Shown: positions 80-43,824 of the stretch, in pieces
Position numbering within the stretch: position 1 is the stretch's first letter
Layout: each line of letters starts with the position of its first letter
NCBI GenBank assembly: GCA_001512885.1
Contig: LFSZ01000038.1
Coordinates: 4,498-48,321 of the forward strand
Reading direction: 5' to 3'
Source of the DNA: Rikenellaceae bacterium DTU001
GTDB lineage: Bacteria; Bacteroidota; Bacteroidia; Bacteroidales; DTU049
Length of the DNA: 43,824 nt
Notes under the pieces: generated by a model
Seen by the model: only the letters and a program-made list of their open reading frames with translations
What the model was told of the DNA's origin: nothing
Database searches by the model: none
Translations under genes and position numbers: made by a program

Positions 80-87
80 TAAATTTG
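80..87 (+). promoter_or_regulatory. -7 box (TAAATTTG) for ricT operon
   Basis: The sequence matches the Bacteroidota -7 consensus TAnnTTTG and lies 13 nt before the ricT ATG. No clear -33 TTG is visible. The predicted leader is only a few nucleotides long. Confidence 0.5.
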
Positions 88-100
88 CAAAAATAATTAA

Positions 101-1195
101 ATGGACTCAGATACTATAAAAAGTTTAAATGCAAGAGGATTGATAGCTATAAATATTGATAGCAAAACAGAGTTGCTTTTTACTAATAGATGGCAAAAGC
201 TCACTTCTTATAAAGATGCTAAGCATGATAAAGATTTTTATATAGCTTTTCCCGAGGCGATAGAATACGTAGAGGTACAATTCAAAAATGATAGAAAACA
301 ATTTTATAGAAATACAACTGGAATGCCATTAGAAATAGGTTCATTAGTAGCGGTAGAAGCTAATCCCGGTCATGATATTGGAGTAGTATGCCTGACAGGT
401 CGCGAAGTCATACAACAAATGAAACGTAAAAAATCAAAGAATAACAATGGTGAATTATTGAATTTGTATAGAATAGCAAAAGAAAATGATATAGATAAAT
501 TTTTAGATGCTATCAAAAATGAGGAGAAAGTCATAAAGCAAACTAAAAAAATTATCAAAGAAAAAGGCTTAGAAATGAAATTGATAGATGTAGAATATCA
601 GGGTGATGGCACTAAAGCTACTTTTTATTATATAGCTGATGAGCGTGTAGACTTTAGAGAACTCATTAAAACTTTAGCAAGTAAATTTAGAATAAGAGTA
701 GAGATGCGTCAGATAGGTGCTAGACAAGAGACAGCTAAACTAGGATGGATAGGACCTTGTGGTAGAGAATTGTGTTGTTCTACATATAAATGTGTGTTTA
801 GTTCTGTATCTATCACTGCTGCTAGTATTCAGCAATTAACATTAAATCCTCAACGTCTTGCTGGTATGTGTACTAAACTAAAATGTTGCTTGGCATATGA
901 ATTACCACTTTACGAAAAATTTATTACTAGTTTACCACCTACAGATATCCCATTAATTACTAAAGAAGCTAAAGCCACATATGTAAAAGCTGATATTTTC
1001 AAAAATGTAATGTATTACTCGTATGAAAATAGTGATTTATTGTTTGGCTTGCCTATATCTGCTGTTATACAAATACAAGAATTAAATAAAAAAGGCGAAA
1101 TACCGGAAAAACTTGAAGAATTTGCGGTAATTAGTGAATACACTGTAGAAGAGAGTGTAAGTCAAGAAGATTTATCAAAATTAGAAGATGAATAA
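101..1195 (+). CDS. ricT: PSP1/RicT-family protein
   Basis: 364 aa cytoplasmic protein of the PSP1 C-terminal-domain family (RicT/YaaT). In Bacillus RicT is part of an iron-sulfur complex that affects RNA processing and phosphorelay signalling; its role in Bacteroidota is not established. The sequence shows the family's cysteine pattern: C220, C225, C226 and C231 in a GPCGRELCC context, then C257, C262 and C263 in an MCTKLKCC context, which fits [4Fe-4S] binding. The conserved core runs from about residue 85 to 270 and the acidic C-terminal tail is variable. The ATG is the first after a -7 box at 80-87. The gene overlaps gldH by 8 bp and heads the ricT-gldH-mrcA-ispG operon. The family call is firm; the function is inferred from homologues. 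Confidence 0.88.
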   Translation: MDSDTIKSLNARGLIAINIDSKTELLFTNRWQKLTSYKDAKHDKDFYIAFPEAIEYVEVQFKNDRKQFYRNTTGMPLEIGSLVAVEANPGHDIGVVCLTGREVIQQMKRKKSKNNNGELLNLYRIAKENDIDKFLDAIKNEEKVIKQTKKIIKEKGLEMKLIDVEYQGDGTKATFYYIADERVDFRELIKTLASKFRIRVEMRQIGARQETAKLGWIGPCGRELCCSTYKCVFSSVSITAASIQQLTLNPQRLAGMCTKLKCCLAYELPLYEKFITSLPPTDIPLITKEAKATYVKADIFKNVMYYSYENSDLLFGLPISAVIQIQELNKKGEIPEKLEEFAVISEYTVEESVSQEDLSKLEDE

Positions 1196-1664
1196 TAATT
1201 TTTTTATTTTAATATTTATAGTAATATTATTACTTAGCTCTTGCAAGCAGGATAAGTATTATGATATACAATCCTTTGATGATGAAGTATGGGTTTATAC
1301 AGAATGGAAGGAATTTGCTATTCCCATACCTGATACCATTAATCTATACAATTTTCATTTGCTTTTGCGTACTTCTCAAGAGTATCCGTATACTAATTTA
1401 TATTTATTTGTGCAAAATATTCCTCCTACTGGATCTATATACGAAGATACATTATTGCTGATATTATATGATGAAAATGGCAAGCCTATCGGAAAAAAAA
1501 GCAATAAAAATTATATCTATGATTTTTTAATAAGAAAAAATTATATCTTCCCATCTACTGGTGTTTACACACTTTTAGTAACACATGGTATGAGAGATAG
1601 TATTTTGCCAGGTATAATAGAAATAGGATTCAAATTTGAAAAAGTAAATAAAAATGAAAGATAA
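1188..1664 (+). CDS. gldH: Gliding motility lipoprotein GldH
   Basis: 158 aa lipoprotein. The hydrophobic signal (residues 4-15) ends in a lipobox LLSSC with C19 as lipidation site. Features I recognise from GldH are the W-x-x-F entry strand near residues 35-48, the R-x-x-x-x-YPYTNLYLFV block (about 62-77), a DTLLL strand, and the closing HGMRDSILPGIIEIG block (about 134-148). GldH is required for gliding in Flavobacterium and is associated with the GldKLMN/type IX secretion machinery; many non-gliding Bacteroidota keep it. The start overlaps the end of ricT by 8 bp and the end overlaps mrcA by 11 bp, so translation is probably coupled. The neighbour order ricT-gldH-mrcA is familiar from other Bacteroidota and supports the call, which otherwise rests on a weakly conserved family. 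Confidence 0.78.
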   Translation: MNNNFFILIFIVILLLSSCKQDKYYDIQSFDDEVWVYTEWKEFAIPIPDTINLYNFHLLLRTSQEYPYTNLYLFVQNIPPTGSIYEDTLLLILYDENGKPIGKKSNKNYIYDFLIRKNYIFPSTGVYTLLVTHGMRDSILPGIIEIGFKFEKVNKNER

Positions 1665-4044
1665 TTTTTTTTCGATCTTCAAAACTGAAGATGAAAATTT
1701 TAAAAAATTTTTAAAAAATCTTTGGATAATATTTTTTTGTATTCTAGGATTTATATTTATTTTTTTTATAGGTGTATATTATGGACTCTTAGGCCCTATA
1801 CCTTCTTTTGAGCAATTAGAAAATCCTTTAGATAAATTTTCTAGCGAATTAATAAGTGTAGATGATAATGTGATAGGTAAATATTATTATGAAGAAAATA
1901 GATCTTGGGTTAGCTACAATGAGATAAGTCCATACGTTATACAAGCTTTAATAGCTACCGAAGATAAACGTTTTTATAAACATAGCGGGATAGATTTTAA
2001 AGGATTAGCTAGGGTATTTTTCAAAACTATAATAGGACAACAAAAAGGTAGTGGTGGCGGTAGTACTATTACTCAACAATTAGCAAAAAATTTATTTAAA
2101 CGCCCTGATAATATTAACAAAATCAAACTAATAGGTATTAAATTTAGAGAATGGATGACTGCTATAAAATTAGAAAGAAATTATTCAAAAGATGAAATAA
2201 TTGCAATGTATTTAAATACTGTGCCTTTTGGTTATCAATTATATGGAGTCAAATCTGCTTCATTATATTATTTTGGTAAAAATCCCAATGAAATCGATAT
2301 AGATGAAGCTGCTATTTTGATAGGTATGTTAAAAGCTACTACTAGATTTAATCCTATTCTTAACCCAGAAAATGCCAAAAATAGAAGAAATATTGTTTTG
2401 AAGCAAATGCTTAAAAATCAATTTATTAATAAAGAACAATATGATTCATTAAAGGTAAAGGAAATCACAAAGCCAGAAACAAGTATCACAACTAAAACTG
2501 ACGACCTTGCACCATATTTTCGTGAATATCTACGTCTGTACATGACTGCAAAGGAGCCTGATCATAAAAAATATAAGAATAAAGCTGATTACAAAAAGGC
2601 AAAAGAATTATGGGATAATGATCCATTATATGGATGGTGTAATAAAAATACAAAACCTGACGGCAAACCATACAATTTATATAGCGATGGACTACGTATA
2701 TATACTACCATTGATAGTCGTATACAAAGATATGCTGAGGCAGCTGTAAGGGAGCATCTGAGTCAAGATTTGCAAAAAAAATTTTTCCAAGAAGCTAAAC
2801 GAAGCAAATATGCTCCATTTGTAGGAGCAACTTCTCAAGCCGAAGTAGATAAATTGATGGATATGGCTATTAAACGCACTGATAGATATCTCAGTATGGT
2901 CAGAGATGGTTATAGTGAAAAGGAAATAAATAAAGCTTTTCATACCCCTACAGAAATGAGAGTTTTTAGCTGGCAAGGTATCAAAGATACAGTGATGACA
3001 CCTTATGATTCTATAATATATCATAAATATTTCTTAAGAGCAAGCTTCGTAGCTATAGAACCACAAACAGGCTATGTAAGGGCTTATGTTGGCGGACCCG
3101 CATATAGTTTTTTCAAATATGATAATGCCGCTGTAGGCAAAAGACAAGTAGGATCTACTTTTAAACCTTTTGTATATGCTTCAGCTTTTATCAATGATCC
3201 TACTCTTACACCTTGTACTAAAGTGCCACTGATACCTGTTACTTTTGATATGCCCGATGGTTCTCAATGGACGCCAAGAAATTCTGGAAATGTACAAGAA
3301 GGTACTATGATAGAACTCTCGAAAGCTCTAGCTCTATCTATTAACTGGATTTCGGCTTTTTTAATTAAAGAAAAAACAACACCTGAAGCTGTAGTAGAAT
3401 TAGCAAAATCGATGGGTATTACTGATACCATACCGCCAGTACCATCTATTTGCTTGGGTACAGCTGAATTAAAATTAATTGAGCTTTTAAGCGCCTTATC
3501 TACTTTTGCAAATTCAGGAGTAGCACAAAAACCTATCATGGTTACTAGGATAGAAGACCGCTTTGGTAATATAATTAGTGTTTTCCCTTATGGGGTTACT
3601 CATGAAGTTATGGACGAATTTACTGCTTACAAAATGATATCTTTGATGAAAGGTGTTGTAGATTATGGTACTGGTAGCAGAATTAGATATATTTATAAAA
3701 TTCCTTATCCTGTTGCTGGTAAAACTGGCACCACAGACAATAATAGTGATGGATGGTTTATCGGTATTACTCCAAAATTAGCAGCTGGAGTGTGGGTAGG
3801 CGGTGAAGATATGCAGATACATTTTCGTAGTATGGCTTTAGGTCAAGGTGCTAGCATGGCATTACCTATTTGGGGACTTTTTATGCAAAAAGTCTACGCT
3901 GATGACTCGTTAAATCTGTATAAAGGTGATTTTGATAGACCAGCAGGCATGAGCTACGAGATGCTCTGTAATCCATCCACTACAGATGCTGATGGCTCGT
4001 CTATGCCATTTATTATGCCTAAGAAGAAAAAAACTTGGAATTAA
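1654..4044 (+). CDS. mrcA: Class A penicillin-binding protein 1A
   Basis: 796 aa bifunctional peptidoglycan synthase. One transmembrane segment (about 22-45) anchors it in the inner membrane. The glycosyltransferase 51 domain follows, with catalytic E103 in TEDKRFYKHSGID and the GGSTITQQLAKN motif (135-146). The transpeptidase domain has S501-TF-K504 (nucleophile), S562-I-N564 and K690-T-G692. A segment of roughly 150 residues (about 290-460) rich in K, Y and D separates the two domains. The protein polymerises glycan strands from lipid II and cross-links the stem peptides. The gene overlaps gldH by 11 bp, and ispG starts one base after its stop, so all four genes should be co-transcribed. 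IspG feeds the undecaprenyl carrier on which lipid II is built, which makes functional sense. All active-site motifs are intact. Confidence 0.95.
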   Translation: MKDNFFSIFKTEDENFKKFLKNLWIIFFCILGFIFIFFIGVYYGLLGPIPSFEQLENPLDKFSSELISVDDNVIGKYYYEENRSWVSYNEISPYVIQALIATEDKRFYKHSGIDFKGLARVFFKTIIGQQKGSGGGSTITQQLAKNLFKRPDNINKIKLIGIKFREWMTAIKLERNYSKDEIIAMYLNTVPFGYQLYGVKSASLYYFGKNPNEIDIDEAAILIGMLKATTRFNPILNPENAKNRRNIVLKQMLKNQFINKEQYDSLKVKEITKPETSITTKTDDLAPYFREYLRLYMTAKEPDHKKYKNKADYKKAKELWDNDPLYGWCNKNTKPDGKPYNLYSDGLRIYTTIDSRIQRYAEAAVREHLSQDLQKKFFQEAKRSKYAPFVGATSQAEVDKLMDMAIKRTDRYLSMVRDGYSEKEINKAFHTPTEMRVFSWQGIKDTVMTPYDSIIYHKYFLRASFVAIEPQTGYVRAYVGGPAYSFFKYDNAAVGKRQVGSTFKPFVYASAFINDPTLTPCTKVPLIPVTFDMPDGSQWTPRNSGNVQEGTMIELSKALALSINWISAFLIKEKTTPEAVVELAKSMGITDTIPPVPSICLGTAELKLIELLSALSTFANSGVAQKPIMVTRIEDRFGNIISVFPYGVTHEVMDEFTAYKMISLMKGVVDYGTGSRIRYIYKIPYPVAGKTGTTDNNSDGWFIGITPKLAAGVWVGGEDMQIHFRSMALGQGASMALPIWGLFMQKVYADDSLNLYKGDFDRPAGMSYEMLCNPSTTDADGSSMPFIMPKKKKTWN

Positions 4045-4045
4045 A

Positions 4046-5527
4046 ATGCGTAGAAAAACCCTACAAATTCCCATTGGCAATATATTAATTGGTAGTGAAT
4101 ATCCTATTATTATACAATCTATGACTAATACTTTAACATCTGATATTCAAAGTACTGTAAATCAGTGTATTAGATTATTTGATGCTGATGCTAAACTCGT
4201 TAGAATAACAGCTCGCAATCTGAAAGAAGCTGAATGTCTAAAATTGATTAAAAATGATTTAATAAATATGGGATATGAGCTACCTATTGCAGCAGATATT
4301 CATTTCAATCCACATTTAGCCAAAGTAGCTGCCAATTATGTTGAAAAAATACGCATCAATCCTGGTAATTTTGTTAATTTATTTCCTAATAATAAGTCAT
4401 ATACTAATGAGCAATATAAGTTAGAAGTAGATGCTATTAAAAATGAAATCGAAAAACTTTTACCTATCTTAGTAGCTAATAAAGTAGCTGTGAGAATAGG
4501 TGTAAATAAAGGTTCACTGTCTCAACGATTAATTGATAAATTTGGTAATACTACTGAAGCTCTCGTAGAATCTGCTATAGAAAATGTAAAAATTTTTAAT
4601 AAGTTAAACTTTAATAATATTGTTATTAGCATTAAAACTAGTTCTGTTTATGAGACAATAGCTGCTAATAGGCTATTAGTATCTAAACTCGACAAACTAG
4701 GACTTTATTATCCGATCCATCTCGGCGTCACTGAAGCTGGTATAGACAAAGAGGGTATTATCAAATCCTCAGTAGCCATTGGCAATTTATTATTAGATGG
4801 TATAGGTGATACTATTAGGGTTTCTTTAACTGGTGATCCAGTAAAAGAAATTTCTGTAGCTGAGACAATTATCAAGACCTATCAAAAATTTTTACCTTTA
4901 CCACCAATGCCGACTTATAGTTATACTTTAGAGAATGCTCCTAAAATATTTACTATCAATGATTTAACTACTGAACATCTTGATTTAAATAATCTATTCA
5001 TAGACCTTCCAAAAAATAGGCCTTTCGATTTCATAGCAAATAAATTAAAAACTGTCGAACAAGTGAATATCAAAATAGATATTGATAAATTTGATCTCTA
5101 TGAATTAAGCATAATTCTTGGTAGAGGCTGGATAGATGGATGGCTAAAAGATGTTTATTTAGTTTGTGATAATCTAAAAAATGAAAAAGTAAATGACGTA
5201 TATCAAATTTTACAAGTAACTGGTAAAAAAAAGTTACTCACTGAAGTGATATCTTGTCCATCGTGTGGACGAACCATGTTTGATATTGAGAGCATTACTA
5301 GGCAGGTAAAAAAACGTTTTAGCATATATCCTGGACTTACTTTAGCTGTGATGGGATGCATAGTAAATGGTCCAGGCGAAATGCGAGAAGCTCAAGCAGG
5401 AATAGTAGGTAATGGAATTAATAAAGCAGATATATATGTCTTTGGTAGAGTAGTCGCTAAAAATATCCCAGTAGATAAGGTAGTAGACGAATTTGAAAAA
5501 CAATTAAAAATACATAATCTGATATAA
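4046..5527 (+). CDS. ispG: 4-hydroxy-3-methylbut-2-enyl diphosphate synthase (flavodoxin)
   Basis: 493 aa enzyme of the MEP isoprenoid pathway. It reduces 2-C-methylerythritol 2,4-cyclodiphosphate to HMBPP with a [4Fe-4S] cluster. The TIM-barrel domain covers about residues 5-285 (IIIQSMTNT, ADIHFNP, IRINPGN, LGVTEAG). An inserted domain of about 110 residues (285-398) follows, then the cluster domain with C404 and C407 (SCPSC), C438 (MGC) and E445 (NGPGE). The insert marks the plant/Bacteroidota three-domain type, but it is small here; homologues in Bacteroides are about 600 aa. The ATG at 4046 was chosen over an in-frame ATG 60 bp upstream because the upstream one lies inside mrcA and adds 20 residues unlike the family. 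The gene is the last of the ricT operon. Confidence 0.94.
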   Translation: MRRKTLQIPIGNILIGSEYPIIIQSMTNTLTSDIQSTVNQCIRLFDADAKLVRITARNLKEAECLKLIKNDLINMGYELPIAADIHFNPHLAKVAANYVEKIRINPGNFVNLFPNNKSYTNEQYKLEVDAIKNEIEKLLPILVANKVAVRIGVNKGSLSQRLIDKFGNTTEALVESAIENVKIFNKLNFNNIVISIKTSSVYETIAANRLLVSKLDKLGLYYPIHLGVTEAGIDKEGIIKSSVAIGNLLLDGIGDTIRVSLTGDPVKEISVAETIIKTYQKFLPLPPMPTYSYTLENAPKIFTINDLTTEHLDLNNLFIDLPKNRPFDFIANKLKTVEQVNIKIDIDKFDLYELSIILGRGWIDGWLKDVYLVCDNLKNEKVNDVYQILQVTGKKKLLTEVISCPSCGRTMFDIESITRQVKKRFSIYPGLTLAVMGCIVNGPGEMREAQAGIVGNGINKADIYVFGRVVAKNIPVDKVVDEFEKQLKIHNLI

Positions 5528-5673
5528 AAAATAATTGATTTTTTGTTCTCAAAAAATTAAATAATATAGTACCAAAAACAGAGAGAAAACTAATCTATTA
5601 TATTTTAATTAAAATCATTTAATGTTTAGATATAAAATTATGATTTTTGTATTAAATCAAAGAAGATATTTAT

Positions 5674-5689
5674 TATGATATAAATCATA
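5674..5689. promoter_or_regulatory. Palindrome upstream of His-rich protein
   Basis: TATGAT-ATAA-ATCATA is a perfect 6-bp inverted repeat. It lies just upstream of where the -33 element of the 5716-5723 -7 box would fall. A second imperfect palindrome lies ahead of the TonB receptor gene at 6151-6172. A metal-responsive repressor site is possible, but the regulator is unknown and AT-rich palindromes also arise by chance. Confidence 0.25.
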
Positions 5690-5715
5690 TAGTTAAAGTT
5701 GAAATTAATTATTTA

Positions 5716-5723
5716 TAATTTTG
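5716..5723 (+). promoter_or_regulatory. -7 box (TAATTTTG) for His-rich gene
   Basis: Matches TAnnTTTG and lies 22 nt before the ATG at 5746. The nearest TTG (5699-5701) is too close to be a standard -33 element. Confidence 0.4.
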
Positions 5724-5745
5724 CTTTTGCAATTTTATTACATTA

Positions 5746-6120
5746 ATGAAAAACAACTTTAAACAAACTTTTATTAATCTCCTTTCACTATTTATGGCAG
5801 TATTTATGATATTGCTAATAGTCAATAATATAGTTTTTTTGCATGTTCATAAATTACCAAATGGGGAAATAATTGTGCATGCACATCCTTATAATAAATC
5901 TAATGACACTGAGCCTATTAAAAATCATACTCATTCTAATAGAGAATATTTAGTATTAGATCAATTAAAAAATATATTTGTTATTACATTTATATTTTTT
6001 TCTTTTTTATTTTTTTCAAATAAAATCTTAATTTTCAAAAACAAAATTGTTTATCATGGCTTTGATCATGATAAATTTTATAAAAATAAAGCACCTCCAT
6101 ACTTCATATTAAATTATTAA
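5746..6120 (+). CDS. Histidine-rich two-TM membrane protein
   Basis: 124 aa protein without an assigned function. It has a hydrophobic segment at about 10-32, a hydrophilic loop of about 45 residues, and a second hydrophobic segment at about 77-95. The loop holds histidines 33, 35, 45, 47, 61 and 63 in HVH, HAH and HTHS motifs, with H104 and H108 after the second segment. Similar small proteins with an HVH...HAHPY...HTHS pattern sit directly before TonB receptors in other Bacteroidota. The paired histidines suggest binding of a divalent metal such as zinc; this is inference. The TonB receptor gene starts 96 bp downstream on the same strand, so the two probably act together in metal sensing, storage or transport. 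A palindrome and a -7 box lie upstream. Confidence 0.7.
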   Translation: MKNNFKQTFINLLSLFMAVFMILLIVNNIVFLHVHKLPNGEIIVHAHPYNKSNDTEPIKNHTHSNREYLVLDQLKNIFVITFIFFSFLFFSNKILIFKNKIVYHGFDHDKFYKNKAPPYFILNY

Positions 6121-6150
6121 TAGTAGTACTATTTTATTCATTTTATAATT

Positions 6151-6172
6151 TGCTTAAATGATCATATAAGCA
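6151..6172. promoter_or_regulatory. 22-bp near-palindrome ahead of TonB receptor
   Basis: TGCTTA pairs with TAAGCA around a central ATGATCAT, giving a 22-bp inverted repeat with a single mismatched pair (6157/6166). It lies in the 96-bp gap between the histidine-rich gene and the receptor, 45 bp before the receptor ATG. It could be an operator or a hairpin in the mRNA between the two genes. No binding protein can be named. Confidence 0.35.
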
Positions 6173-6216
6173 GATTAAGATTATTAATTCAATTATAAAC
6201 TAAAAAATTAAAATTT

Positions 6217-8595
6217 ATGAAAAACAAAAAAATAGTTTTTATATTATGTATCATGTTATGTACATTAAATATTTATTCACAAAAAAAAGAAACTGATGCA
6301 AATATAATAGGGCATGTAATGTGCGATGGAGAGCACTTACCCTTTGCATCAATATATATTAAAGGAACAAATATCGGAACAACTAGTGATGAAACTGGAC
6401 ATTATAAAATAATAAATATCCCAATAGGTACTCATATTTTAGTAGCTAGGTCTGTGGGATACAAATCACAAGAAATAGAAATAGATGTTTGCATTGGTGA
6501 AACTAAAGAAATAAACTTTGAATTAGAAAAGGATGTTTTAAATTTATCCGAAGTAGTTATAACAGGGGAGAGGAAAATGATATATAAGAAAAAATCATCA
6601 ATTATTGTTAACACACTTTCTCCTAAATTATTTGATCTGACTCAATCTACATCTATGGGAGAAAATCTAAATTATTGTCCAGGATTAAGAATGGAAAATA
6701 ATTGTCAAAATTGTGGAAGTTCACAAGTAAGAATGAATGGTATGGATGGTCCTTATTCACAAATCTTAATAAATGGTCGTCCAATTTTTAGCAGTTTAGC
6801 TAGTGTATATGGCTTAGAATTAATACCTACTAATATGATAGACAGAATAGAAATAGTTAGAGGTGGTGGATCAGCTCTATATGGTAGTAATGCTATTGCA
6901 GGTACTATAAATATAATTCTAAAAGATCCTTCAATAAATTCTTATGAATTTGGTATAAGTCAAGGAATTATTGGTATTGGGATAGATAGTACTGGAGGCA
7001 TAGCAAATGATTTTTCTATTAAATTCAATACTTCGATAGTATCGACTAATAATAAAACTGGTATGACTTTATATGGTTTTTATCGCAATAGGAATCCTTT
7101 TGATGCAAATAATGATGATTTCTCTGAATTAAGTTTATTAAAAAATCTTTCAATGGGAACTCGATTATACCATAAAATTGGAACTAAAAGTAAATTATCG
7201 ACAGATTTTTTTATAATTTCGGAAAAAAGAAGGGGAGGGGATAAATTTGATTATCCAGTTCATGAATCAAATATAACGGAATCTGCAGAACACTTTATTA
7301 CTACGGGAGCCTTAAACTATGAAAGATATTTTAGAAAAAATGATCTTTTATCAATATATTTATCAGCTCAGAAGGTAGATAGGGATTCGTATTATGGAGC
7401 AAATCAATCTTTAAATTCTTATGGTAAAACTCAGGATGTTTCTTTGGTAGTAGGTGCTCAATATAATGTATATTTTGATAAATCTAATTTGATATTTGGT
7501 GTAGAAAATAATGGATCATGGCTAAAAGATAAAAAATTAGGATATCCAGATATAGACAATGCAATGATAATAAATGATATTATTATAAATATACCTCATG
7601 TTAATAATACTATATTGACAAATCAAACAAGTAATATTATAGCTGGGTTTGCTCAATATGAATATAATTGGGAAAGAATGAAAATAGCTATTGGGTTACG
7701 TTTGGATAAGTATAATATAAAAGATAAAAATAAATCCAAAAATAATATATCTGGTAATATACTTAATCCTCGTATTAATTTTAAGTATGATTTTAATTCT
7801 TTCTGCCAAGGTCGCATTAGTTATTCGCAGGGATATCGTGCACCACAGATATTTGATGAAGATTTACATGTAGAAACCTCAGGTGCTAGGCAGATAATTC
7901 ATATAAATAGTCCTAATCTCAAAATAGAAACTAGTCGTAGCTATATGATGTCATTAGATTTTAATAAAAATTTTTCTAATATATATATTAACTTTTTGAT
8001 AGAAGGTTTTTTTACCAAGTTAAATAACCCATTTACCAATGTTTTTGGTTTGCCAGATTCTAATGGTATAGTGATTTATACACGTATAAATGCAGATGAT
8101 GGAGCCAGTGTAATGGGGGTTAATATCGAATTTAATATTATTCCTTTTGAAAAATTATCAATAAATACAGGATTTACTTTGCAAAGTAGTAAATATGATG
8201 TGCCTCAAGAGTTTAATGAGAAGAGATTTATGCGTACTCCAAATAATTATGGATATATAATATTAGATTACAAACTAACAAAAAAATTTGGAATAGCTTT
8301 ATCGGGTATCTATACCGGTAAAATGCTCGTCCCATATTTTGGCAATCAAATTGCTGATCCTATGGCAGGTGAACTGAGAAATACTCAAAACTTTTTTGAT
8401 TTTGGATTAAAGACATGGTATAATGTAAAAATTAATGGTGCTACATTACAATTATTTATAGGTATTAAAAATATATTTAATTCTTATCAAAAAGATTTTG
8501 ATGTTGGCCTCGATAGAGATCCTGGTTATATTTATGGGCCAGCTTATCCAAGAACAATAAATTTTGGAATTAAAATAGGAAATGCTATTAAATGA
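6217..8595 (+). CDS. TonB-dependent outer-membrane receptor
   Basis: 792 aa outer-membrane receptor for energised import. In order: signal peptide (about 1-21), a carboxypeptidase-D-regulatory-like domain (about 30-108), a TonB-box-like SEVVITG (111-117), a plug domain (about 125-237) ending in the conserved ALYGSNAIAGTINIIL block, and a 22-strand-type beta barrel to the C-terminus. The plug contains an unusual cysteine set (C154, and C163/C166 in NCQNCG) that I recognise from a Bacteroidota subgroup of receptors; it may bind metal or form a disulfide. It has no SusD partner, so polysaccharide import is unlikely. The upstream histidine-rich protein points to a metal or metal-chelate substrate. 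The substrate is not proven; cobalamin or siderophore uptake are alternatives. Confidence 0.88.
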   Translation: MKNKKIVFILCIMLCTLNIYSQKKETDANIIGHVMCDGEHLPFASIYIKGTNIGTTSDETGHYKIINIPIGTHILVARSVGYKSQEIEIDVCIGETKEINFELEKDVLNLSEVVITGERKMIYKKKSSIIVNTLSPKLFDLTQSTSMGENLNYCPGLRMENNCQNCGSSQVRMNGMDGPYSQILINGRPIFSSLASVYGLELIPTNMIDRIEIVRGGGSALYGSNAIAGTINIILKDPSINSYEFGISQGIIGIGIDSTGGIANDFSIKFNTSIVSTNNKTGMTLYGFYRNRNPFDANNDDFSELSLLKNLSMGTRLYHKIGTKSKLSTDFFIISEKRRGGDKFDYPVHESNITESAEHFITTGALNYERYFRKNDLLSIYLSAQKVDRDSYYGANQSLNSYGKTQDVSLVVGAQYNVYFDKSNLIFGVENNGSWLKDKKLGYPDIDNAMIINDIIINIPHVNNTILTNQTSNIIAGFAQYEYNWERMKIAIGLRLDKYNIKDKNKSKNNISGNILNPRINFKYDFNSFCQGRISYSQGYRAPQIFDEDLHVETSGARQIIHINSPNLKIETSRSYMMSLDFNKNFSNIYINFLIEGFFTKLNNPFTNVFGLPDSNGIVIYTRINADDGASVMGVNIEFNIIPFEKLSINTGFTLQSSKYDVPQEFNEKRFMRTPNNYGYIILDYKLTKKFGIALSGIYTGKMLVPYFGNQIADPMAGELRNTQNFFDFGLKTWYNVKINGATLQLFIGIKNIFNSYQKDFDVGLDRDPGYIYGPAYPRTINFGIKIGNAIK

Positions 8596-10871: not shown

Positions 10872-11771
10872 TTAAGATATTTTATTTCTAGGATGACAAC
10901 TTTCTATAACATCTCGTAAGTATGACATAGAAATATGTGTATAGATTTCTGTAGTAGTGATAGATGAGTGTCCTAGCATTTCTTGTATGGCAAATAAATC
11001 TGCACCATTTTCGATCATATGTGTAGCGAAGCTATGTCTGAATGTATGAGGGTGCACATTTTTGCTAATACCCGCTTTAGCAGCACAATCTTTTACTATT
11101 ATAAATATCATTTCTCTACTCAATTTTTTACCACGTCTATTCAAAAAAATATATTGCTGATATTGAGTTATCACAGGATAGTGGGGCCTGCTATATTCTA
11201 TATAATAGTGTAGAGCTTTTTTAGCTTTACTGCCTATTGGGACATATCGTTCTTTATCACCTTTGCCTATGACCCTTATCATTGTCTCTTCTTCGAAGTA
11301 GTCTATCATTTTCAAGTTGACAAGTTCACTGACACGTAATCCGCAACCATATAAAACTTCTATTATGGCTTTATTGCGATGCCCTTCAAACTTGCTTAGA
11401 TCTATCACTGCTATTATTTGCTCTATTTCTTCTACAGATAATACTTCTGGCAATTTTCGAGTTAATTTTGGCAATTTTAATCGTTCAGCAGGATTTTCTT
11501 TAATTATTTCTTCTTCTAATAAAAAATTATAAAATGATCTGATACCTGAGATAATACGTGCCAAGCTACTACTTTCTAGCTCTAATTCTGATAAAAAACT
11601 TACAAAACCTTCTAAATCTTTTAAATTAGCGTCTAAGAAAGATTTATTTATATTATTAAAGTAATTCATCAATTTTTTCACATCCCTCAGGTATGCATCT
11701 ATAGTATTTTTACTATTATGCTTATCGAGCATCAAATAAGTGTGAAAACTTTTAAGATATTCTTCATTCAT
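10872..11771 (-). CDS. xerD: Tyrosine recombinase XerD/XerC
   Basis: 299 aa site-specific recombinase that resolves chromosome dimers at dif. An N-terminal SAM-like core-binding domain (about 1-90) is followed by the catalytic domain with R146 (GCGLRVSEL), K170, H242 and R245 (HTFRHSFATHM), H268 (LGHSS) and nucleophile Y277 (EIYTHIS). The length and the complete catalytic set match Xer proteins and not phage integrases. Whether it is XerC or XerD cannot be settled from the sequence alone. It starts 16 bp after the purB stop, so it should be the second gene of a purB-xerD transcript. No att site or phage gene is adjacent, which supports a housekeeping role. Confidence 0.9.
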   Translation of the reverse strand: MNEEYLKSFHTYLMLDKHNSKNTIDAYLRDVKKLMNYFNNINKSFLDANLKDLEGFVSFLSELELESSSLARIISGIRSFYNFLLEEEIIKENPAERLKLPKLTRKLPEVLSVEEIEQIIAVIDLSKFEGHRNKAIIEVLYGCGLRVSELVNLKMIDYFEEETMIRVIGKGDKERYVPIGSKAKKALHYYIEYSRPHYPVITQYQQYIFLNRRGKKLSREMIFIIVKDCAAKAGISKNVHPHTFRHSFATHMIENGADLFAIQEMLGHSSITTTEIYTHISMSYLRDVIESCHPRNKIS

Positions 11772-11787
11772 TTTTTTTAAAAAAATA

Positions 11788-13125
11788 TTAAATGCCGTAA
11801 TAATTATGTGGTGAGAGATTTAATAATTTTTCTTTTATTTCGTCATTTACATCTAATTGATTAATAAAATCAACAAAATCATGTTTTTTTAAACCTGATT
11901 TACCTCTTGTGAATTGTTTAAGGGCCTCATAAGGATTGGGATAACCATATCTGCGTAAGATAGTTTGTATGCCTTCGGCTATTATTTCCCAATGATTATC
12001 TAGATCTTCATCAATTTTAGATTTGTTTACATCTAATTTATTCAATCCAAATTTCAAAGAATTATATGCAATGAGAGAATGAGCATAGGGTACTCCAATA
12101 TTTCTCAAAACGGTAGAATCACTTAGATCTCTCTGTAATCTAGAAATTGGTAATTTATTAGATAAATGCTCTAGCTGTGCATTAGCAATACCTAAATTGC
12201 CTTCAGCGTTTTCAAAATCTATAGGATTGACTTTATGTGGCATAGTAGAGCTACCGACTTCTCTTTTATCTATTTTTAAATGAAAATAATCTAACATGAT
12301 GTAAAGCCAAAAGTCTCTACTAAGATCTAATAAAATGTTATTAATACGTTTCAAAGCATCAAAAAAAGCTGCAGAATAATCATAATGATCTATTTGTGTA
12401 GTGTTTTGCAATCGTATAAGTCCCAAACTACTAAGAAACTCATTGCTAAATTTAACCCAATCTATATCTGGATAAGCCACTATGTGAGCATTGAAATTAC
12501 CTACCGCTCCGCCAAATTTACCAGCAAAAGGAATGAAATTGATCAGATGAAGTTGATTATTTAGTCTTTCGATAAAAACAGCTATTTCTTTACCAAGTCG
12601 TGTAGGTGATGCTAATTGACCATGAGTACGAGCAGGCATTATTATTTGCCACCATTTGTTAGAATAATCATTTAAAATATTTAAAATTTCTTCTATAGAT
12701 GGATATAAAACTTCAAACCATGCATCTCGCATCATCATGGGGAAAGCTGTATTATTAATATCTTGGGAGGTGAGCCCAAAGTGAATAAATTCTTTTTCTT
12801 TTTCGAATCCTTTTTTATCAAATTGTACTCTAAGCCAATTTTCTACAGCTTTCACATCATGGCGTATTTCATTTTCTATTGCTTTGATCTCATTAGCTGC
12901 TTGGATAGAAAAACTTTCGTATATCGATAGTAGCCATCTTTCTCGTTCTTCATTTAAAAAATTTTCTAATTCTGGTAATGGTATTTTACATAATGCTATG
13001 AAATATTTTATTTCTACATTTAATCTATATTTTATTAATGCAAATTCAGAAAAATAATTTTCTAAAATTTTTGTCTGTTCGCAGTATCTACCATCTATTG
13101 GAGATATTTGTAATAAATTGGTCAT
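11788..13125 (-). CDS. purB: Adenylosuccinate lyase
   Basis: 445 aa cytoplasmic enzyme of purine synthesis. It releases fumarate from SAICAR and from adenylosuccinate. Seen are TSQDINN (about 119-125), ARTHGQ with the acid/base histidine near 168, and the flexible signature loop GSSTMPHKVNP (about 291-301) with the catalytic serine. The ATG at 13125 was preferred to an in-frame TTG at 13137 because the peptide then begins MTNLLQISPIDGRY, as in relatives of the E. coli-type enzyme, and because the -7 box (13135-13142) overlaps the TTG. The box ends 9 nt before the ATG. xerD follows 16 bp downstream. Confidence 0.95.
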   Translation of the reverse strand: MTNLLQISPIDGRYCEQTKILENYFSEFALIKYRLNVEIKYFIALCKIPLPELENFLNEERERWLLSIYESFSIQAANEIKAIENEIRHDVKAVENWLRVQFDKKGFEKEKEFIHFGLTSQDINNTAFPMMMRDAWFEVLYPSIEEILNILNDYSNKWWQIIMPARTHGQLASPTRLGKEIAVFIERLNNQLHLINFIPFAGKFGGAVGNFNAHIVAYPDIDWVKFSNEFLSSLGLIRLQNTTQIDHYDYSAAFFDALKRINNILLDLSRDFWLYIMLDYFHLKIDKREVGSSTMPHKVNPIDFENAEGNLGIANAQLEHLSNKLPISRLQRDLSDSTVLRNIGVPYAHSLIAYNSLKFGLNKLDVNKSKIDEDLDNHWEIIAEGIQTILRRYGYPNPYEALKQFTRGKSGLKKHDFVDFINQLDVNDEIKEKLLNLSPHNYYGI

Positions 13126-13134
13126 TTTTTTATA

Positions 13135-13142
13135 CAAATATA
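13135..13142 (-). promoter_or_regulatory. -7 box (TATATTTG) for purB
   Basis: Matches TAnnTTTG on the minus strand, 9 nt before the purB ATG. No -33 TTG at the expected distance. It implies a leader of only a few nucleotides. Confidence 0.45.
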
Positions 13143-13159
13143 AAGTAAAAAATGTAATT

Positions 13160-13195
13160 AATTAATACATTTGAAATTGATGATTTGTATTAATT
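13160..13195 (-). terminator. AT-only hairpin after M43 protease gene
   Basis: AATTAATACA (13160-13169) and TGTATTAATT (13186-13195) form a perfect 10-bp inverted repeat with a 16-nt loop, about 118 bp past the protease stop. The stem is nearly all A and T, so a terminator role is weakly supported. Confidence 0.22.
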
Positions 13196-13312
13196 TTAAT
13201 TATATTAATTTGATTAAGTGTATAATAAATAAAAACTATAACCAAAATTTTAGAAGATTAAAAAAAATAAGGAGTCAAGGGCCTAATGAGTTGAAATATT
13301 TATTTTAATATT

Positions 13313-15556
13313 TTACAGCTTCAAAAGTGGCAAAAATGTTTCATTATTATCTAATCTGACTCTGATGTAATAGATTCCATTAGATAAATTATTTAGATTG
13401 TTTAAAGGAATCGAATAATTACCATTGTTCATATAATCATTTAAAATATTATGAACTAAGTTACCATTAATATCTATTATTTGTAGAGAAACTTTATATG
13501 AATTATTCAATTCTAAATATATTTGAGTATTCTCGTTTAAAGGATTAGGATATAATTGAATTTGATTACCTGCTAACACTTGAGTATTGATATCAGACAT
13601 CGATAAAATATTAATATCATCTATATAAATATTGTTGCCACCATTAGAATAAAAGCTAAATTTCAATCTAAGATTATCATAATTTTGAACATAAGATGAT
13701 TGAATAATAAAGCTAAATTCGGCCCATTGAGTTGTGGATGAAGGTGTAAATTCTGATTCTATAGGAGCCGTAGTTATAAGGTTTTGACCAGATTTTACTA
13801 ATCTACTTTGCCATGTTTTACCACAATCATTAGAAATATAAACCGTCAATTTATCATAGATAGTATCAGCAGGAGTTAAAATAGTACTTGGTATTATTTT
13901 ACCAGAATAAGCTACTTTAAACGAAACTTTAGCATGACCAGAAGGTAAAGAAGTAAGATTGTAAGCAGGTGTGATGAACTCGTCTTTACTGCCAGCCACA
14001 TTATCTACGAAATTAGCTAAATAGATGCATTTATTTCCAGAATAGCTTGTTCCAGTTTTTATTTGCCATACGGAGCCAGTATCATTAATTACTATAAAAT
14101 CATTAATAGGAGTGTACTCAAAAGATTCACTAATAGGTGCTGTGTTATTGGTCGTAGAGCTATAAACATGAATATAATTGGCCTTAGTAAGCGTGTTAGT
14201 TCCTTGAGCATTATTTACCTGAAATGTAACAGAATAAACACCAGGACTATTGTATATAATAGTCGGATTTTCTAGTGTAGAATTATCAGGATTACCACCT
14301 TGAAAAGTCCAATTAAATGTTGTAGCTGTACCATTAAATGAAGCATTGAAAAAGCTTATTTCACTACCAGCACAGACATATTGAGTATTAGAGAAAAAAT
14401 CTGCTATAGGTGCACATTCATGTGAATCTTCTTCTAATACACCTGTTGCTTGTAAATTTTCTACAGACCATAAATTACGCCTGTAACCATTAAGTGTAGC
14501 ATCTATTCTTTGATATTGGCCCAATGTGAATATATTATTACAATAGCCCCATTGATAGTCCATATAATTTTCTATCATATCTGGTTCATCTGGATCTTCA
14601 GTACAAGTATTTCTAGATCCTGGCGTAAAACAACTAATTGATGTATTCTGTGTAGCTTGATCTACTGGTGGTGTGTCATCTACCTCGTCACCCGTTGTTG
14701 CTAACATAGACGGACAGCCACTGCTAGTAGGTATAAGTCCTAATATCAAATTTTGAAAAGTATGATATAAATTGAAATAATGGCCAGATTCGTGAGTAAA
14801 ATAGCGATTTACCATATTTAAAGGCATGCCTGCAAAATTTTCAGCAGTACCTATACCACCTATACAATCATGACGAATCAGTACACCATCTATATCTGTA
14901 TCTCCACCTGTAAGAGCTTGGCTAAGTGGATTGTCGGGAGGAAAGGGCGACATACCACCTATCAAAGCTCCTTCTGGCAAAGCTAACCCTTCGGGATAAA
15001 TGAAATTAACTACAAAAATATTCATATATTTTGTAGGATCCCACACATACTTTTTCATAGTATTGAAATATGCATAATTAGTCTCTGGTGTGTAATGCCT
15101 CACTATCCCATCAGTGCAGTTACCATTAGGATCTTTTTGGGCTAGACGAAATTCTATATTACAGTTAGCAGCTCTACTTTTAAATAAGTCATAAGTATTA
15201 ACAGTGTCTGCATTTTGTTTATTAAAATCAATATTTATCTTTTCTAATCCATCCAGTATTTGAGCTTTATTAATATTTTCGCTACCATAAGTATGTATTA
15301 TATGAAATACTACGGGGATAATCCTTTTACCATCAATCAGTGTATCAGTTTTTTCAAATGAAAAATCTTTATTAAAAAGTGCTTTGAAGTTATCCTCATA
15401 AATCATATAATCTACAATTAGATGGGGATCTTCTATCACTTTTAGCTTTAATAATACATCATCAGCTGGATATAAATAAATATTTTGGTTATTTTGCGTT
15501 TTAGCTATTAAACAAGCTAAAATCATAAAAAATGAAAAAATAATAGTACTTTTCAT
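13313..15556 (-). CDS. Secreted M43-type metalloprotease with PKD and T9SS signal
   Basis: 747 aa secreted protein. A signal peptide (about 1-20) is followed by a pappalysin-like M43 metalloprotease domain (about 80-360). Its zinc motif is H255-ESG-H259 with H265 as third ligand (HESGHYFNLYH); it also has the DTPP and ENYMDY segments with the Met-turn. A PKD-like beta-sandwich (about 385-465; FNWTFQGGNP, PGVYSVTFQV), a beta-rich domain of jelly-roll type (about 480-655), and a type IX secretion C-terminal signal (about 665-747; YPNP, IIDINGNLV, NGIYYIRV) complete it. It should cross the outer membrane through T9SS and be attached to the surface or released, degrading external protein. Its -7 box is at 15572-15579. 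The substrate is unknown. Confidence 0.9.
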   Translation of the reverse strand: MKSTIIFSFFMILACLIAKTQNNQNIYLYPADDVLLKLKVIEDPHLIVDYMIYEDNFKALFNKDFSFEKTDTLIDGKRIIPVVFHIIHTYGSENINKAQILDGLEKINIDFNKQNADTVNTYDLFKSRAANCNIEFRLAQKDPNGNCTDGIVRHYTPETNYAYFNTMKKYVWDPTKYMNIFVVNFIYPEGLALPEGALIGGMSPFPPDNPLSQALTGGDTDIDGVLIRHDCIGGIGTAENFAGMPLNMVNRYFTHESGHYFNLYHTFQNLILGLIPTSSGCPSMLATTGDEVDDTPPVDQATQNTSISCFTPGSRNTCTEDPDEPDMIENYMDYQWGYCNNIFTLGQYQRIDATLNGYRRNLWSVENLQATGVLEEDSHECAPIADFFSNTQYVCAGSEISFFNASFNGTATTFNWTFQGGNPDNSTLENPTIIYNSPGVYSVTFQVNNAQGTNTLTKANYIHVYSSTTNNTAPISESFEYTPINDFIVINDTGSVWQIKTGTSYSGNKCIYLANFVDNVAGSKDEFITPAYNLTSLPSGHAKVSFKVAYSGKIIPSTILTPADTIYDKLTVYISNDCGKTWQSRLVKSGQNLITTAPIESEFTPSSTTQWAEFSFIIQSSYVQNYDNLRLKFSFYSNGGNNIYIDDINILSMSDINTQVLAGNQIQLYPNPLNENTQIYLELNNSYKVSLQIIDINGNLVHNILNDYMNNGNYSIPLNNLNNLSNGIYYIRVRLDNNETFLPLLKL

Positions 15557-42264: not shown

Positions 42265-42373
42265 GTCTCCGCTGGTTTTAAAACCCCTGTCTATGTGAGA
42301 CATCCCCTCTACAAGAGGAGAATACGATGTGATTCCCCTTCTCCGAAGGGGTGTCAGGCATAGCCTGACGGGG
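42265..42373. repeat. Multi-hairpin GC-rich intergenic element
   Basis: In order: GTCTC (42265-42269) pairs with GAGAC (42297-42301) and encloses the 12-bp palindrome GGTTTTAAAACC (42274-42285). Then CCTCT-ACA-AGAGG (42306-42318), CCCCTTC-TCC-GAAGGGG (42335-42351) and GTCAGGC-ATA-GCCTGAC (42353-42369), each a perfect stem with a 3-nt loop. The last two are 7-bp stems placed one base apart. I recall similar CCCCTTC...GAAGGGG...TCAGGC intergenic elements in other Bacteroidota; this looks like a REP- or MITE-like family member. No transposase is present. Confidence 0.65.
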
Positions 42374-42559
42374 TAATTAAAAAAACTACGCTGGCCAGCC
42401 CTACCCAACCCTGCTTGCTTGTTTTATTGCAAATCATTTGCCAATGTGGATGGGACACATCTAAAGATTTGTTTTAAGAAAAATAATGATTTCTCTATGA
42501 GACAAATAGCTTGCCATAAGGAAGATACTGGAGATGAAATTTCATAAAGAAAAATTAGA

Positions 42560-43009
42560 TTAGGTACTTTCGTCTTTTATCTTAACTAAATACCATTTGC
42601 TATTATAAATTTTGAAAATATAGTTAACACTAACTCCAGTATCTTCTATCTGAATGTTGTAATTAATTTCATCATCACTTATCTTGATTATTTTTTTCAA
42701 GTAATTTTCAGGGAGTTTTGAGAAATCAATATACTTCCATTCATTTTTATTGATATACATTTCATTAAATGAATCGTTTTCTGTATCATAGAAACAGCAC
42801 TTAAGTGGGAAAATAATCCTTTCTTTCTGAAAAATTGAATCTTTTTGAAATTTATTCAAAAAAATATCAAAATTTTCTTCTTCCTGGAATGAAATAATGT
42901 TAGCAGTGTTTTTAATACTTTTAGTTTCATTTGTATTCTTTTGTATGATACTGCAACTATCTAACATTAAATTAAATAAACAAATTAATATCAAAAGAAA
43001 TTCACTCAT
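42560..43009 (-). CDS. DUF4348-like lipoprotein, candidate immunity protein
   Basis: 149 aa protein with a hydrophobic N-terminus (about 3-16) and a lipobox-like LDSC (C19), so probably a periplasm-facing lipoprotein. The body resembles DUF4348: NFDIFLNKFQKDSIFQKERIIFPL (about 47-70), followed by a beta-rich half with INKNEWKYIDFS and a terminal KWYLVKI strand. DUF4348 has no established function. It starts 39 bp after the stop of the upstream RHS-peptidase gene on the same strand, the usual position of an immunity gene. A periplasmic lipoprotein would be in the right compartment to block a peptidoglycan peptidase. That role is inference. The DUF4348 match is from memory of the motif. Confidence 0.6.
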   Translation of the reverse strand: MSEFLLILICLFNLMLDSCSIIQKNTNETKSIKNTANIISFQEEENFDIFLNKFQKDSIFQKERIIFPLKCCFYDTENDSFNEMYINKNEWKYIDFSKLPENYLKKIIKISDDEINYNIQIEDTGVSVNYIFKIYNSKWYLVKIKDEST

Positions 43010-43048
43010 ATTATTTTTATTTAAATAGTTAACACTTATAATTTAATT

Positions 43049-43824
43049 CTACTCAATATTATCTATTATTTGTTTTTCTTGTAAAGTTGCTGATATTGTA
43101 ATCTTAGGTAATATCCCACCATTATAAATTTTACTATCTGGTGTAATCCATTTTTGAGGGTCTAAAATATTAGATATTTCATTCTCTTGATCACCAGTTG
43201 GATTAATAGAAACCCATTCGCCATCTTTTAATATTTGGATTTCATAATGTAAATGACTTGTTCTGCCAAAATCATCACCATATGCACTTCCACCCATCTG
43301 TGCAATATTATAAGACTCAGAAACATATTGTCCATCTTCAATATTAATTTCACTTAAATGAAAATATCGAGTTCTAAAAGTTCCATCAGGCGAAGTAATG
43401 ACCACAGAACGTCCTTCTCCTCCACTTGGATTATTATCTACACTTGCAAAACCCTCATGCGTCGCAAATATAGGTGATCCATAATCTGTGTTACATCCTC
43501 CCGAATAATTAAAGTCTAATCCTTTATGATAATTACTTGCTCCTGGTAAACCTGTATTACGAGTTCCAAACCAAGAATCAACTTTTACGTACCAATTATT
43601 ATATGGATTGTCAAGCGGTAAAGGTCTTTCTCCATTCGGATCAATCAATTTTACTGGATTACCCAAACAATACATATACGCCGACGTGCTCGGATACTTA
43701 TCGCTCATCGGATCCACTGACAGCCACGCACTCAGCTCACTATCATAATACCTCGCCCCGAAATATGTGTAGCTGGTCTCATTGTCTAGCTCCTTGGCAG
43801 TGAATTTGTACCTACTATCAAACT
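43049..43824 (-). CDS. RHS-repeat protein, C-terminal M23 peptidase (partial)
   Basis: The 3' part of a gene that runs off the window; the frame is open to the last base. The upstream end encodes the end of an RHS core: FTAKELD, TYFGARYYDSEL, WLSVDPMSDKYPSTSAYMYC, GNPVKLIDPNGE. After the DPNG junction (about 43631) the protein changes to an M23 (LytM) metalloendopeptidase. Counting from the GTG at 43717, ligands are H64 and D68 (HKGLD), with H120 (YFHLS), H155 and H157 (HLHYE), so it should be active against peptidoglycan cross-links. A 50-residue tail follows. The RHS part uses more G/C codons than the AT-rich peptidase tail, typical of exchangeable toxin tips. Such proteins are exported and kill neighbouring cells or remodel the wall. 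The next gene may encode immunity. Confidence 0.85.
   Translation of the reverse strand, partial: FDSRYKFTAKELDNETSYTYFGARYYDSELSAWLSVDPMSDKYPSTSAYMYCLGNPVKLIDPNGERPLPLDNPYNNWYVKVDSWFGTRNTGLPGASNYHKGLDFNYSGGCNTDYGSPIFATHEGFASVDNNPSGGEGRSVVITSPDGTFRTRYFHLSEINIEDGQYVSESYNIAQMGGSAYGDDFGRTSHLHYEIQILKDGEWVSINPTGDQENEISNILDPQKWITPDSKIYNGGILPKITISATLQEKQIIDNIE

What the first reader, a model, noticed from the sequence alone, without database searches (positions are those of the whole stretch)
42560..43824. RHS protein with active M23 peptidoglycan peptidase tip and adjacent lipoprotein: candidate toxin-immunity pair
The RHS core ends at DPNGE and is joined to an M23 domain with its full set of zinc and catalytic residues (HKGLD, YFHLS, HLHYE). 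A 149-aa predicted lipoprotein resembling DUF4348 starts 39 bp after the stop. RHS tips are exchangeable toxins (known), and immunity genes sit directly downstream (known). A lipoprotein facing the periplasm is where immunity to a wall hydrolase is needed (inference). Immunity for M23 tips by DUF4348-like lipoproteins is not described to my knowledge. The composition shift at the DPNG junction supports modular exchange.
Basis: partly seen in the sequence, partly recalled or inferred. Interest (0 to 1): 0.65.

Follow-up and report, generated by a model that had tools for sequence, protein, structure and literature searches.

The report
RHS wall-cutting toxin with periplasmic immunity
A Bacteroidales genome carries the tail of an RHS toxin that ends in a cell-wall-cutting enzyme, followed by a small exported protein of unknown function that recurs behind the same kind of toxin in other genomes and is therefore probably its antidote.

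Summary
Window 43049-43822 (-) is the C-terminal 257 aa of an RHS protein, cut by its contig end: an RHS core to DPNG, then an M23 (lysostaphin-fold) peptidase with all five active-site residues. A 149-aa lipoprotein, PF22057/DUF4348 with an NTF2-like fold, starts 39 bp downstream.

The toxin-immunity reading gained support. The pair recurs in a congener (Rikenellaceae bacterium DTU049; tip 37%, immunity 41% identical) and in a Bacteroidales genome of another family. Over 74 RHS tips with a downstream ORF, a DUF4348-like gene follows 3 of 8 M23 tips and 0 of 66 others (Fisher p = 0.0009; 0.008 without the window's genome). Other M23-tipped proteins are followed by different exported proteins (DUF4738, Sel1, unknown).

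Limits: no assay; lipid anchoring is not conserved (the DTU049 homologue has a plain signal peptide); most DUF4348-like genes are not beside RHS; no T6SS sheath gene was found in this lineage; delivery, and whether this copy is full length or an orphan cassette, are unknown; a linked tip+lipoprotein model gave no confident interface. New member of a known kind.

The parts
43631..43822 (-). C-terminal end of the RHS core (Rhs_assc_core), cut by the contig end; ends in DPNG (43631-43642)
   Evidence: TIGR03696 E 3.9e-17; 78-94% DNA identity with other RHS cassettes of the genus, one match ending exactly at DPNG; GC3 53%
43049..43630 (-). Exchangeable tip with stop codon; contains the M23 peptidase domain
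   Evidence: GC3 14% against 53% in the core; homologous tips in G002, G445, G415, G1015
43232..43531 (-). Peptidase family M23 domain (residues 98-197 of the 257-aa ORF); Zn ligands H99, D103, H192, catalytic H155 and H190
   Evidence: PF01551 E 8.8e-14; lysostaphin and ShyA are the best structural matches of the model; residues invariant in alignment A3
43010..43048 (-). 39-bp gap between RHS stop and lipoprotein start
42560..43009 (-). 149-aa predicted lipoprotein, BACOVA_00961-like/DUF4348, NTF2-like fold: candidate immunity protein
   Evidence: PF22057 E 8e-7, DUF4348 E 1.1e-5; PDB 3sbu E 9.1e-10 by sequence; model pLDDT 82.4, Foldseek 3sbu E 2.5e-7, 4mjf 1.6e-6
42953..43009 (-). Signal peptide with lipobox-like LDSC; acceptor Cys at residue 19
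   Evidence: MSEFLLILICLFNLMLDSC, heuristic scan; not tested by a trained predictor

Best explanation
The two genes are a toxin-immunity module at the end of an RHS polymorphic toxin locus. The tip is an active zinc M23 endopeptidase that cuts peptide cross-links of the wall once it reaches the periplasm of a competing cell. The gene behind it makes a small exported NTF2-like protein, here probably lipid-anchored, that stays in the producer's periplasm and blocks the peptidase, most simply by binding over its groove. Shown: gene order, domain identity, intact active-site residues, junction at DPNG, recurrence of the pair, specificity for M23 tips among the RHS tips examined. Inferred: toxicity, inhibition, mode of inhibition, delivery.
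For: Active-site set complete. Pair conserved in G002 = Rikenellaceae bacterium DTU049, where the genes overlap by 11 bp. Pair found in G389, another family of the order, through the toxin alone; its lipoprotein matches a profile built without the window and G002 at E 2.5e-23. Enrichment 3/8 against 0/66, p = 8.6e-4 (0.008 without the window's genome). In the M23 tree the G389 tip lies apart from the window/G002 group (branch support 96/92, but long branches), so DUF4348 appears beside at least two M23 lineages. The same genome has RHS cassettes ending in VanY/M15, Ntox44 and HELGH tips, and cassette-downstream genes in the genus carry signal sequences. The closest lipoprotein (58%, G228) stands alone among short ORFs, as an orphan immunity gene would.
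Against: No activity data. Most DUF4348-like genes in 393 Bacteroidales genomes are not beside RHS, so the family has other roles too. Five of eight M23 tips have a different gene downstream. The signal peptide has an acidic n-region (MSE) and an atypical lipobox (LDSC). A read-through-linked AlphaFold2 model had pTM 0.49, so no interface is predicted with confidence. The RHS N-terminus is missing, and no YD repeats were found in the own genome.
Confidence: 0.72

Rival explanations
1. The pair is a real toxin-immunity pair but a silent cassette: an orphan RHS tip with its immunity gene kept as a reservoir for recombination, not delivered in this strain. (This is compatible with the best explanation of the biochemistry; it differs on whether this copy is used.)
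For: Other cassettes in the genome start inside the core at MKIHYHSDHLG without a signal peptide; no YD repeats in G000 or G002 at E <= 1e-3; G002 and G005 carry tips with only a short piece of core; no TssC in the genus.
Against: The contig ends inside the core, so a full-length carrier cannot be excluded; a congener (G006) has a YD-repeat RHS ORF.
Confidence: 0.35
2. The lipoprotein is a housekeeping DUF4348 protein that happens to sit beside the RHS gene and has nothing to do with the toxin.
For: DUF4348-like genes are widespread and mostly stand alone.
Against: Adjacency recurs in G002 and G389; 3/8 against 0/66; only one such gene was detected in G000 and one in G002.
Confidence: 0.08
3. 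The M23 domain is not the toxin but helps the RHS protein pass a cell wall, and the next gene is an accessory factor.
For: M23 domains also serve as wall-piercing parts of phage particles; Gp16 (PDB 9m7n) is the best sequence match in the PDB.
Against: The domain sits at the extreme C-terminus behind DPNG, where the exchangeable toxin of RHS proteins lies, and nothing else follows it; other tips occupy the same place in the same genome.
Confidence: 0.05

Closest known systems
RHS polymorphic toxins of Bacteroidetes (Zhang et al. 2012, PMC3482391)
   Same: RHS core, DPxG-type junction, exchangeable C-terminal tip, downstream immunity gene, standalone cassettes; peptidoglycan-acting tips such as L,D-peptidase, whose immunity proteins are partly secreted or TM
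   Different: M23 does not occur in the held main text of that catalogue; it names Imm65, paired with Tox-JAB-1, as its only lipobox lipoprotein immunity
T6SS effectors with M23 domains (A. baumannii Tpe4/14/18/24/29, PMC6833914; WHIX effectors such as Awe1, PMC12135965; SARI_02625, PMC12992299)
   Same: M23 domain as periplasm-directed antibacterial domain, signal-peptide-bearing neighbour as immunity
   Different: Not RHS tips; delivered by T6SS, of which no sheath gene was found in the window's genome or congeners
Imm-NTF2 and Imm-NTF2-2 immunity families (PMC3482391)
   Same: NTF2-like fold used for immunity
   Different: Those are paired with Tox-NucA and Tox-JAB-2; the window protein is exported and belongs to DUF4348/BACOVA_00961-like
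Lysostaphin/zoocin A with Lif/Zif
   Same: M23 (lysostaphin-type) wall peptidase with dedicated immunity
   Different: Zif is FemABX-like (reference title in PMC9662197; Lif likewise from my own knowledge) and acts by altering the wall; the window protein has no FemAB match and is an NTF2-like exported protein
DUF4348 structures 3sbu (BF2862), 4mjf (BVU_2238), 4r4k, 2ml5, 2ml6
   Same: Sequence and fold
   Different: No function known; no paper in the held library mentions DUF4348

Membership tests
RHS polymorphic toxin | Rhs_assc_core followed by DPxG and a variable tip | tested here: met
   TIGR03696 E 3.9e-17; different tips on similar cores in the same genome
RHS polymorphic toxin | RHS/YD repeat shell and N-terminal trafficking domain | tested here: inconclusive
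   Lost at the contig end; no YD repeats at E <= 1e-3 in G000
RHS polymorphic toxin | Immunity gene directly downstream | tested here: inconclusive
   Met as gene order and recurrence; protection not tested
Peptidase family M23 | HxxxD and HxH zinc motifs plus further catalytic His; lysostaphin-type fold | tested here: met
Peptidase family M23 | Peptidoglycan endopeptidase activity | not testable with these tools
   Needs an assay
DUF4348 / BACOVA_00961-like, NTF2-like fold | Pfam score above cut-off; NTF2-like fold | tested here: met
   PF22057 29.3 bits over cut-off 27; PF14254 25.4, just under 27.2; model matches 3sbu and 4mjf
T6SS-delivered Rhs effector | T6SS sheath gene in the genome | tested here: not met
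   PF05943 and PF17541 not found in G000 (97.8% complete) and five congeners; PF17541 found in G030 and G1015 in the same search
Lif/Zif (FemABX) immunity | FemAB-type acyltransferase | tested here: not met
   No such match in Pfam or NCBIfam
Bacterial lipoprotein | Signal peptide with lipobox | tested here: inconclusive
   LDSC at residues 16-19 by heuristic; the DTU049 homologue has no lipobox

The most novel reading that the evidence does not exclude
DUF4348-like NTF2-fold proteins are a general class of periplasmic inhibitors of M23 peptidases in Bacteroidota; RHS loci have recruited them as immunity at least twice, and the many stand-alone copies either control the cell's own M23 wall hydrolases or are orphan immunity genes against M23-tipped toxins.
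Probability: 0.2. Interest if true: 0.6.

Novelty: new member of a known kind. Interest (0 to 1): 0.42.

Why it matters
It gives a testable function to DUF4348, a Bacteroidota family with several solved structures and no known role, and adds M23-tipped RHS proteins to the known toxins, with several unrelated exported immunity candidates (DUF4348, DUF4738, Sel1). It also shows a lineage without a detectable T6SS sheath gene keeping arrays of wall-directed RHS tips, which leaves their delivery route open.

Tried and rejected
The tip alone as query in order-wide searches mostly returns cell-wall M23 proteins of about 320 aa, so core plus tip had to be used. A genome-contig scan with the lipoprotein alignment gave only three loci; a viral scan gave none. 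A first version of the enrichment count was wrong, because a spurious second core match pushed the core end into the tip and dropped G000 and G002; found and corrected. T6SS delivery was tested and not supported for this lineage. A complex of tip and lipoprotein, modelled by reading through the in-frame stops as a linker, folded both domains well but gave no confident arrangement. An L259 motif hit is not an M23 tip.

Full report
What is there. On the minus strand the window begins inside an RHS gene. The ORF 43049-43822 has no start in the window, and the window end is also the end of contig C8 of a 117-contig, 1.9 Mb assembly (97.8% complete), so the rest of the gene is not available. The genome belongs to the same genus-level group as G002, whose contig is the public record of Rikenellaceae bacterium DTU049. 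Residues 3-64 are the Rhs-associated core (E 3.9e-17) and residues 98-197 a peptidase M23 domain (E 8.8e-14). All five active-site residues are present and invariant over five RHS-M23 tips. The core is GC-rich for this genome (GC3 53%) and the tip is not (GC3 14%); three other cassettes of the genome show the same step. A BLASTN match at 86% to a congener cassette with another tip stops exactly at DPNG. The modular junction is thus real.

The downstream gene. 42560-43009 encodes 149 aa with a hydrophobic N-terminus ending in LDSC and a domain that passes the PF22057 cut-off and narrowly misses that of DUF4348. By sequence it matches PDB 3sbu (E 9.1e-10) and 4mjf; its own model (pLDDT 82.4) matches the same entries. 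It is an NTF2-like domain. The signal is somewhat odd (acidic n-region, D before S in the lipobox), but the 58% identical G228 homologue has a standard lipoprotein signal.

Is the pairing more than chance? In G002 an M23-tipped RHS gene (37% identical tip) overlaps by 11 bp a gene whose product is 41% identical to the window's lipoprotein. That was the only DUF4348-like match in G002, and G000 also had only one. In an order-wide search with a core-plus-M23 profile, G389 (another family) showed an M23 tip followed by a lipoprotein that hits a DUF4348-like profile built without the window and G002 at E 2.5e-23; Pfam alone sees it weakly (E 8e-4). The G389 core is frameshifted just upstream of the tip, so that copy is a cassette or broken. 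Over all fetched loci, 74 distinct RHS tips have a downstream ORF; a DUF4348-like gene follows 3 of 8 M23 tips and 0 of 66 others, p = 8.6e-4, or 0.008 without the window's genome. The sample is not random: loci came from core, M23 and lipoprotein searches, and G000 and G002 are the same genus. A further DUF4348 protein lies in an RHS cassette array of a Paludibacteraceae genome (L135), though not directly behind a tip.

What else goes with M23 tips. G445 has one followed by a DUF4738 lipoprotein (E 1.1e-10) and another followed by a REP-type transposase; G415 one followed by a Sel1-repeat lipoprotein; G096 by an unassigned lipoprotein; G330 by an unassigned secreted protein. G1015, which has a T6SS sheath gene of the Bacteroidetes type, carries a 1138-aa SLT+M23 protein whose M23 part is like the window's, followed by a lipoprotein weakly related to the G445 one (E 1e-4). 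In the M23 tree the window tip groups with G002, G445, G415 and G1015 (96/92), apart from G389, G096 and G330; long branches make finer claims unsafe. So the same toxin type is paired with different exported proteins, and DUF4348 with more than one M23 lineage.

Surroundings. Other RHS cassettes in the genome end in a VanY/M15 peptidase, Ntox44, an HELGH tip and an unassigned tip. All 16 genes listed behind or between cassettes in G000, G002 and G005 have a hydrophobic signal-like N-terminus: 14 by a crude scan, two more by eye. Over the wider set the scan finds 59 of 74, but also 15 of 32 ORFs in the window at large, so that number alone is weak. No T6SS sheath gene was found in G000 or five congeners with either of two families, one of which detects it in G030 and G1015. 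No YD repeats were found in G000 or G002, while G005 and G006 have them; whether this copy is a full-length toxin or an orphan cassette cannot be decided.

Mechanism. From the anatomy: a zinc M23 endopeptidase reaching the periplasm of a rival and cutting wall cross-links (known chemistry of the family, PMC9662197), and an exported NTF2-like protein in the producer that blocks it. Binding over the groove is the simplest mode; it is inferred. I modelled the two as one chain by reading the in-frame stops as glycine: both domains folded well (lysostaphin and 3sbu as PDB matches), but pTM 0.49 gives no confident placement.

Comparison with what is known. The 2012 catalogue of polymorphic toxins does not mention M23 in its held main text and lists Imm65 as its only lipobox lipoprotein immunity, and Imm-NTF2 against NucA and JAB-2. 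M23 effectors are known for T6SS (PMC6833914, PMC12135965, PMC12992299). No held paper mentions DUF4348 or DUF4738. The library lacks most subscription papers, so absence there is weak evidence of novelty. I file this as a new member of a known kind: an RHS toxin-immunity pair with a tip and an immunity family that I did not find described together.

Noticed in passing
L012 (G000:C80) 3479-4207 +; L011 (G000:C62) 1180-2169 +; L012 1650-2480 +; L015 (G000:C58) 1146-2003 +: Other RHS cassettes in the same genome end in VanY/M15, Ntox44, an HELGH metallopeptidase-like tip and an unassigned tip, each followed by an exported protein.
   Followed up: partly
L154 (G1015:C13) 3796-7820 -: A 1138-aa SLT+M23 protein in a genome with a T6SS sheath gene, its M23 part close to the window tip, followed by a lipoprotein weakly related to DUF4738.
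   Followed up: partly
L130 (G445:C22) 1290-2928 +: M23-tipped RHS followed by a DUF4738 lipoprotein (E 1.1e-10): candidate second immunity family for M23 tips; DUF4738 is in no held paper.
   Followed up: partly
L087 (G228:C6) 11660-14921 +: Closest relative of the window lipoprotein (58%) stands alone among short ORFs that are preceded by a similar repeated element, with a REP-type transposase in the row: possible orphan immunity island.
   Followed up: partly
L135 3-4539 +: Paludibacteraceae MAG (horse faeces): two RHS cassettes with HExxH-like tips, then a 313-aa protein with a C-terminal DUF4348 domain.
   Followed up: partly
L229 (G006:C107) 80-3694 +: 1204-aa ORF that contains the core and the start of the same tip twice, with YD repeats between: looks like an assembly collapse of two RHS copies.
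   Followed up: no
window 42280-42400: Intergenic stretch between mfd and the lipoprotein with GC-rich palindromic REP-like sequence (seen).
   Followed up: no
window 43610-43642 and homologues in L083, L130, L132, L264: Many M23 tips begin right after the DPxG-like junction with a G-[EKN]-I-P-W motif (ERPLP in the window), perhaps a processing or junction feature.
   Followed up: no
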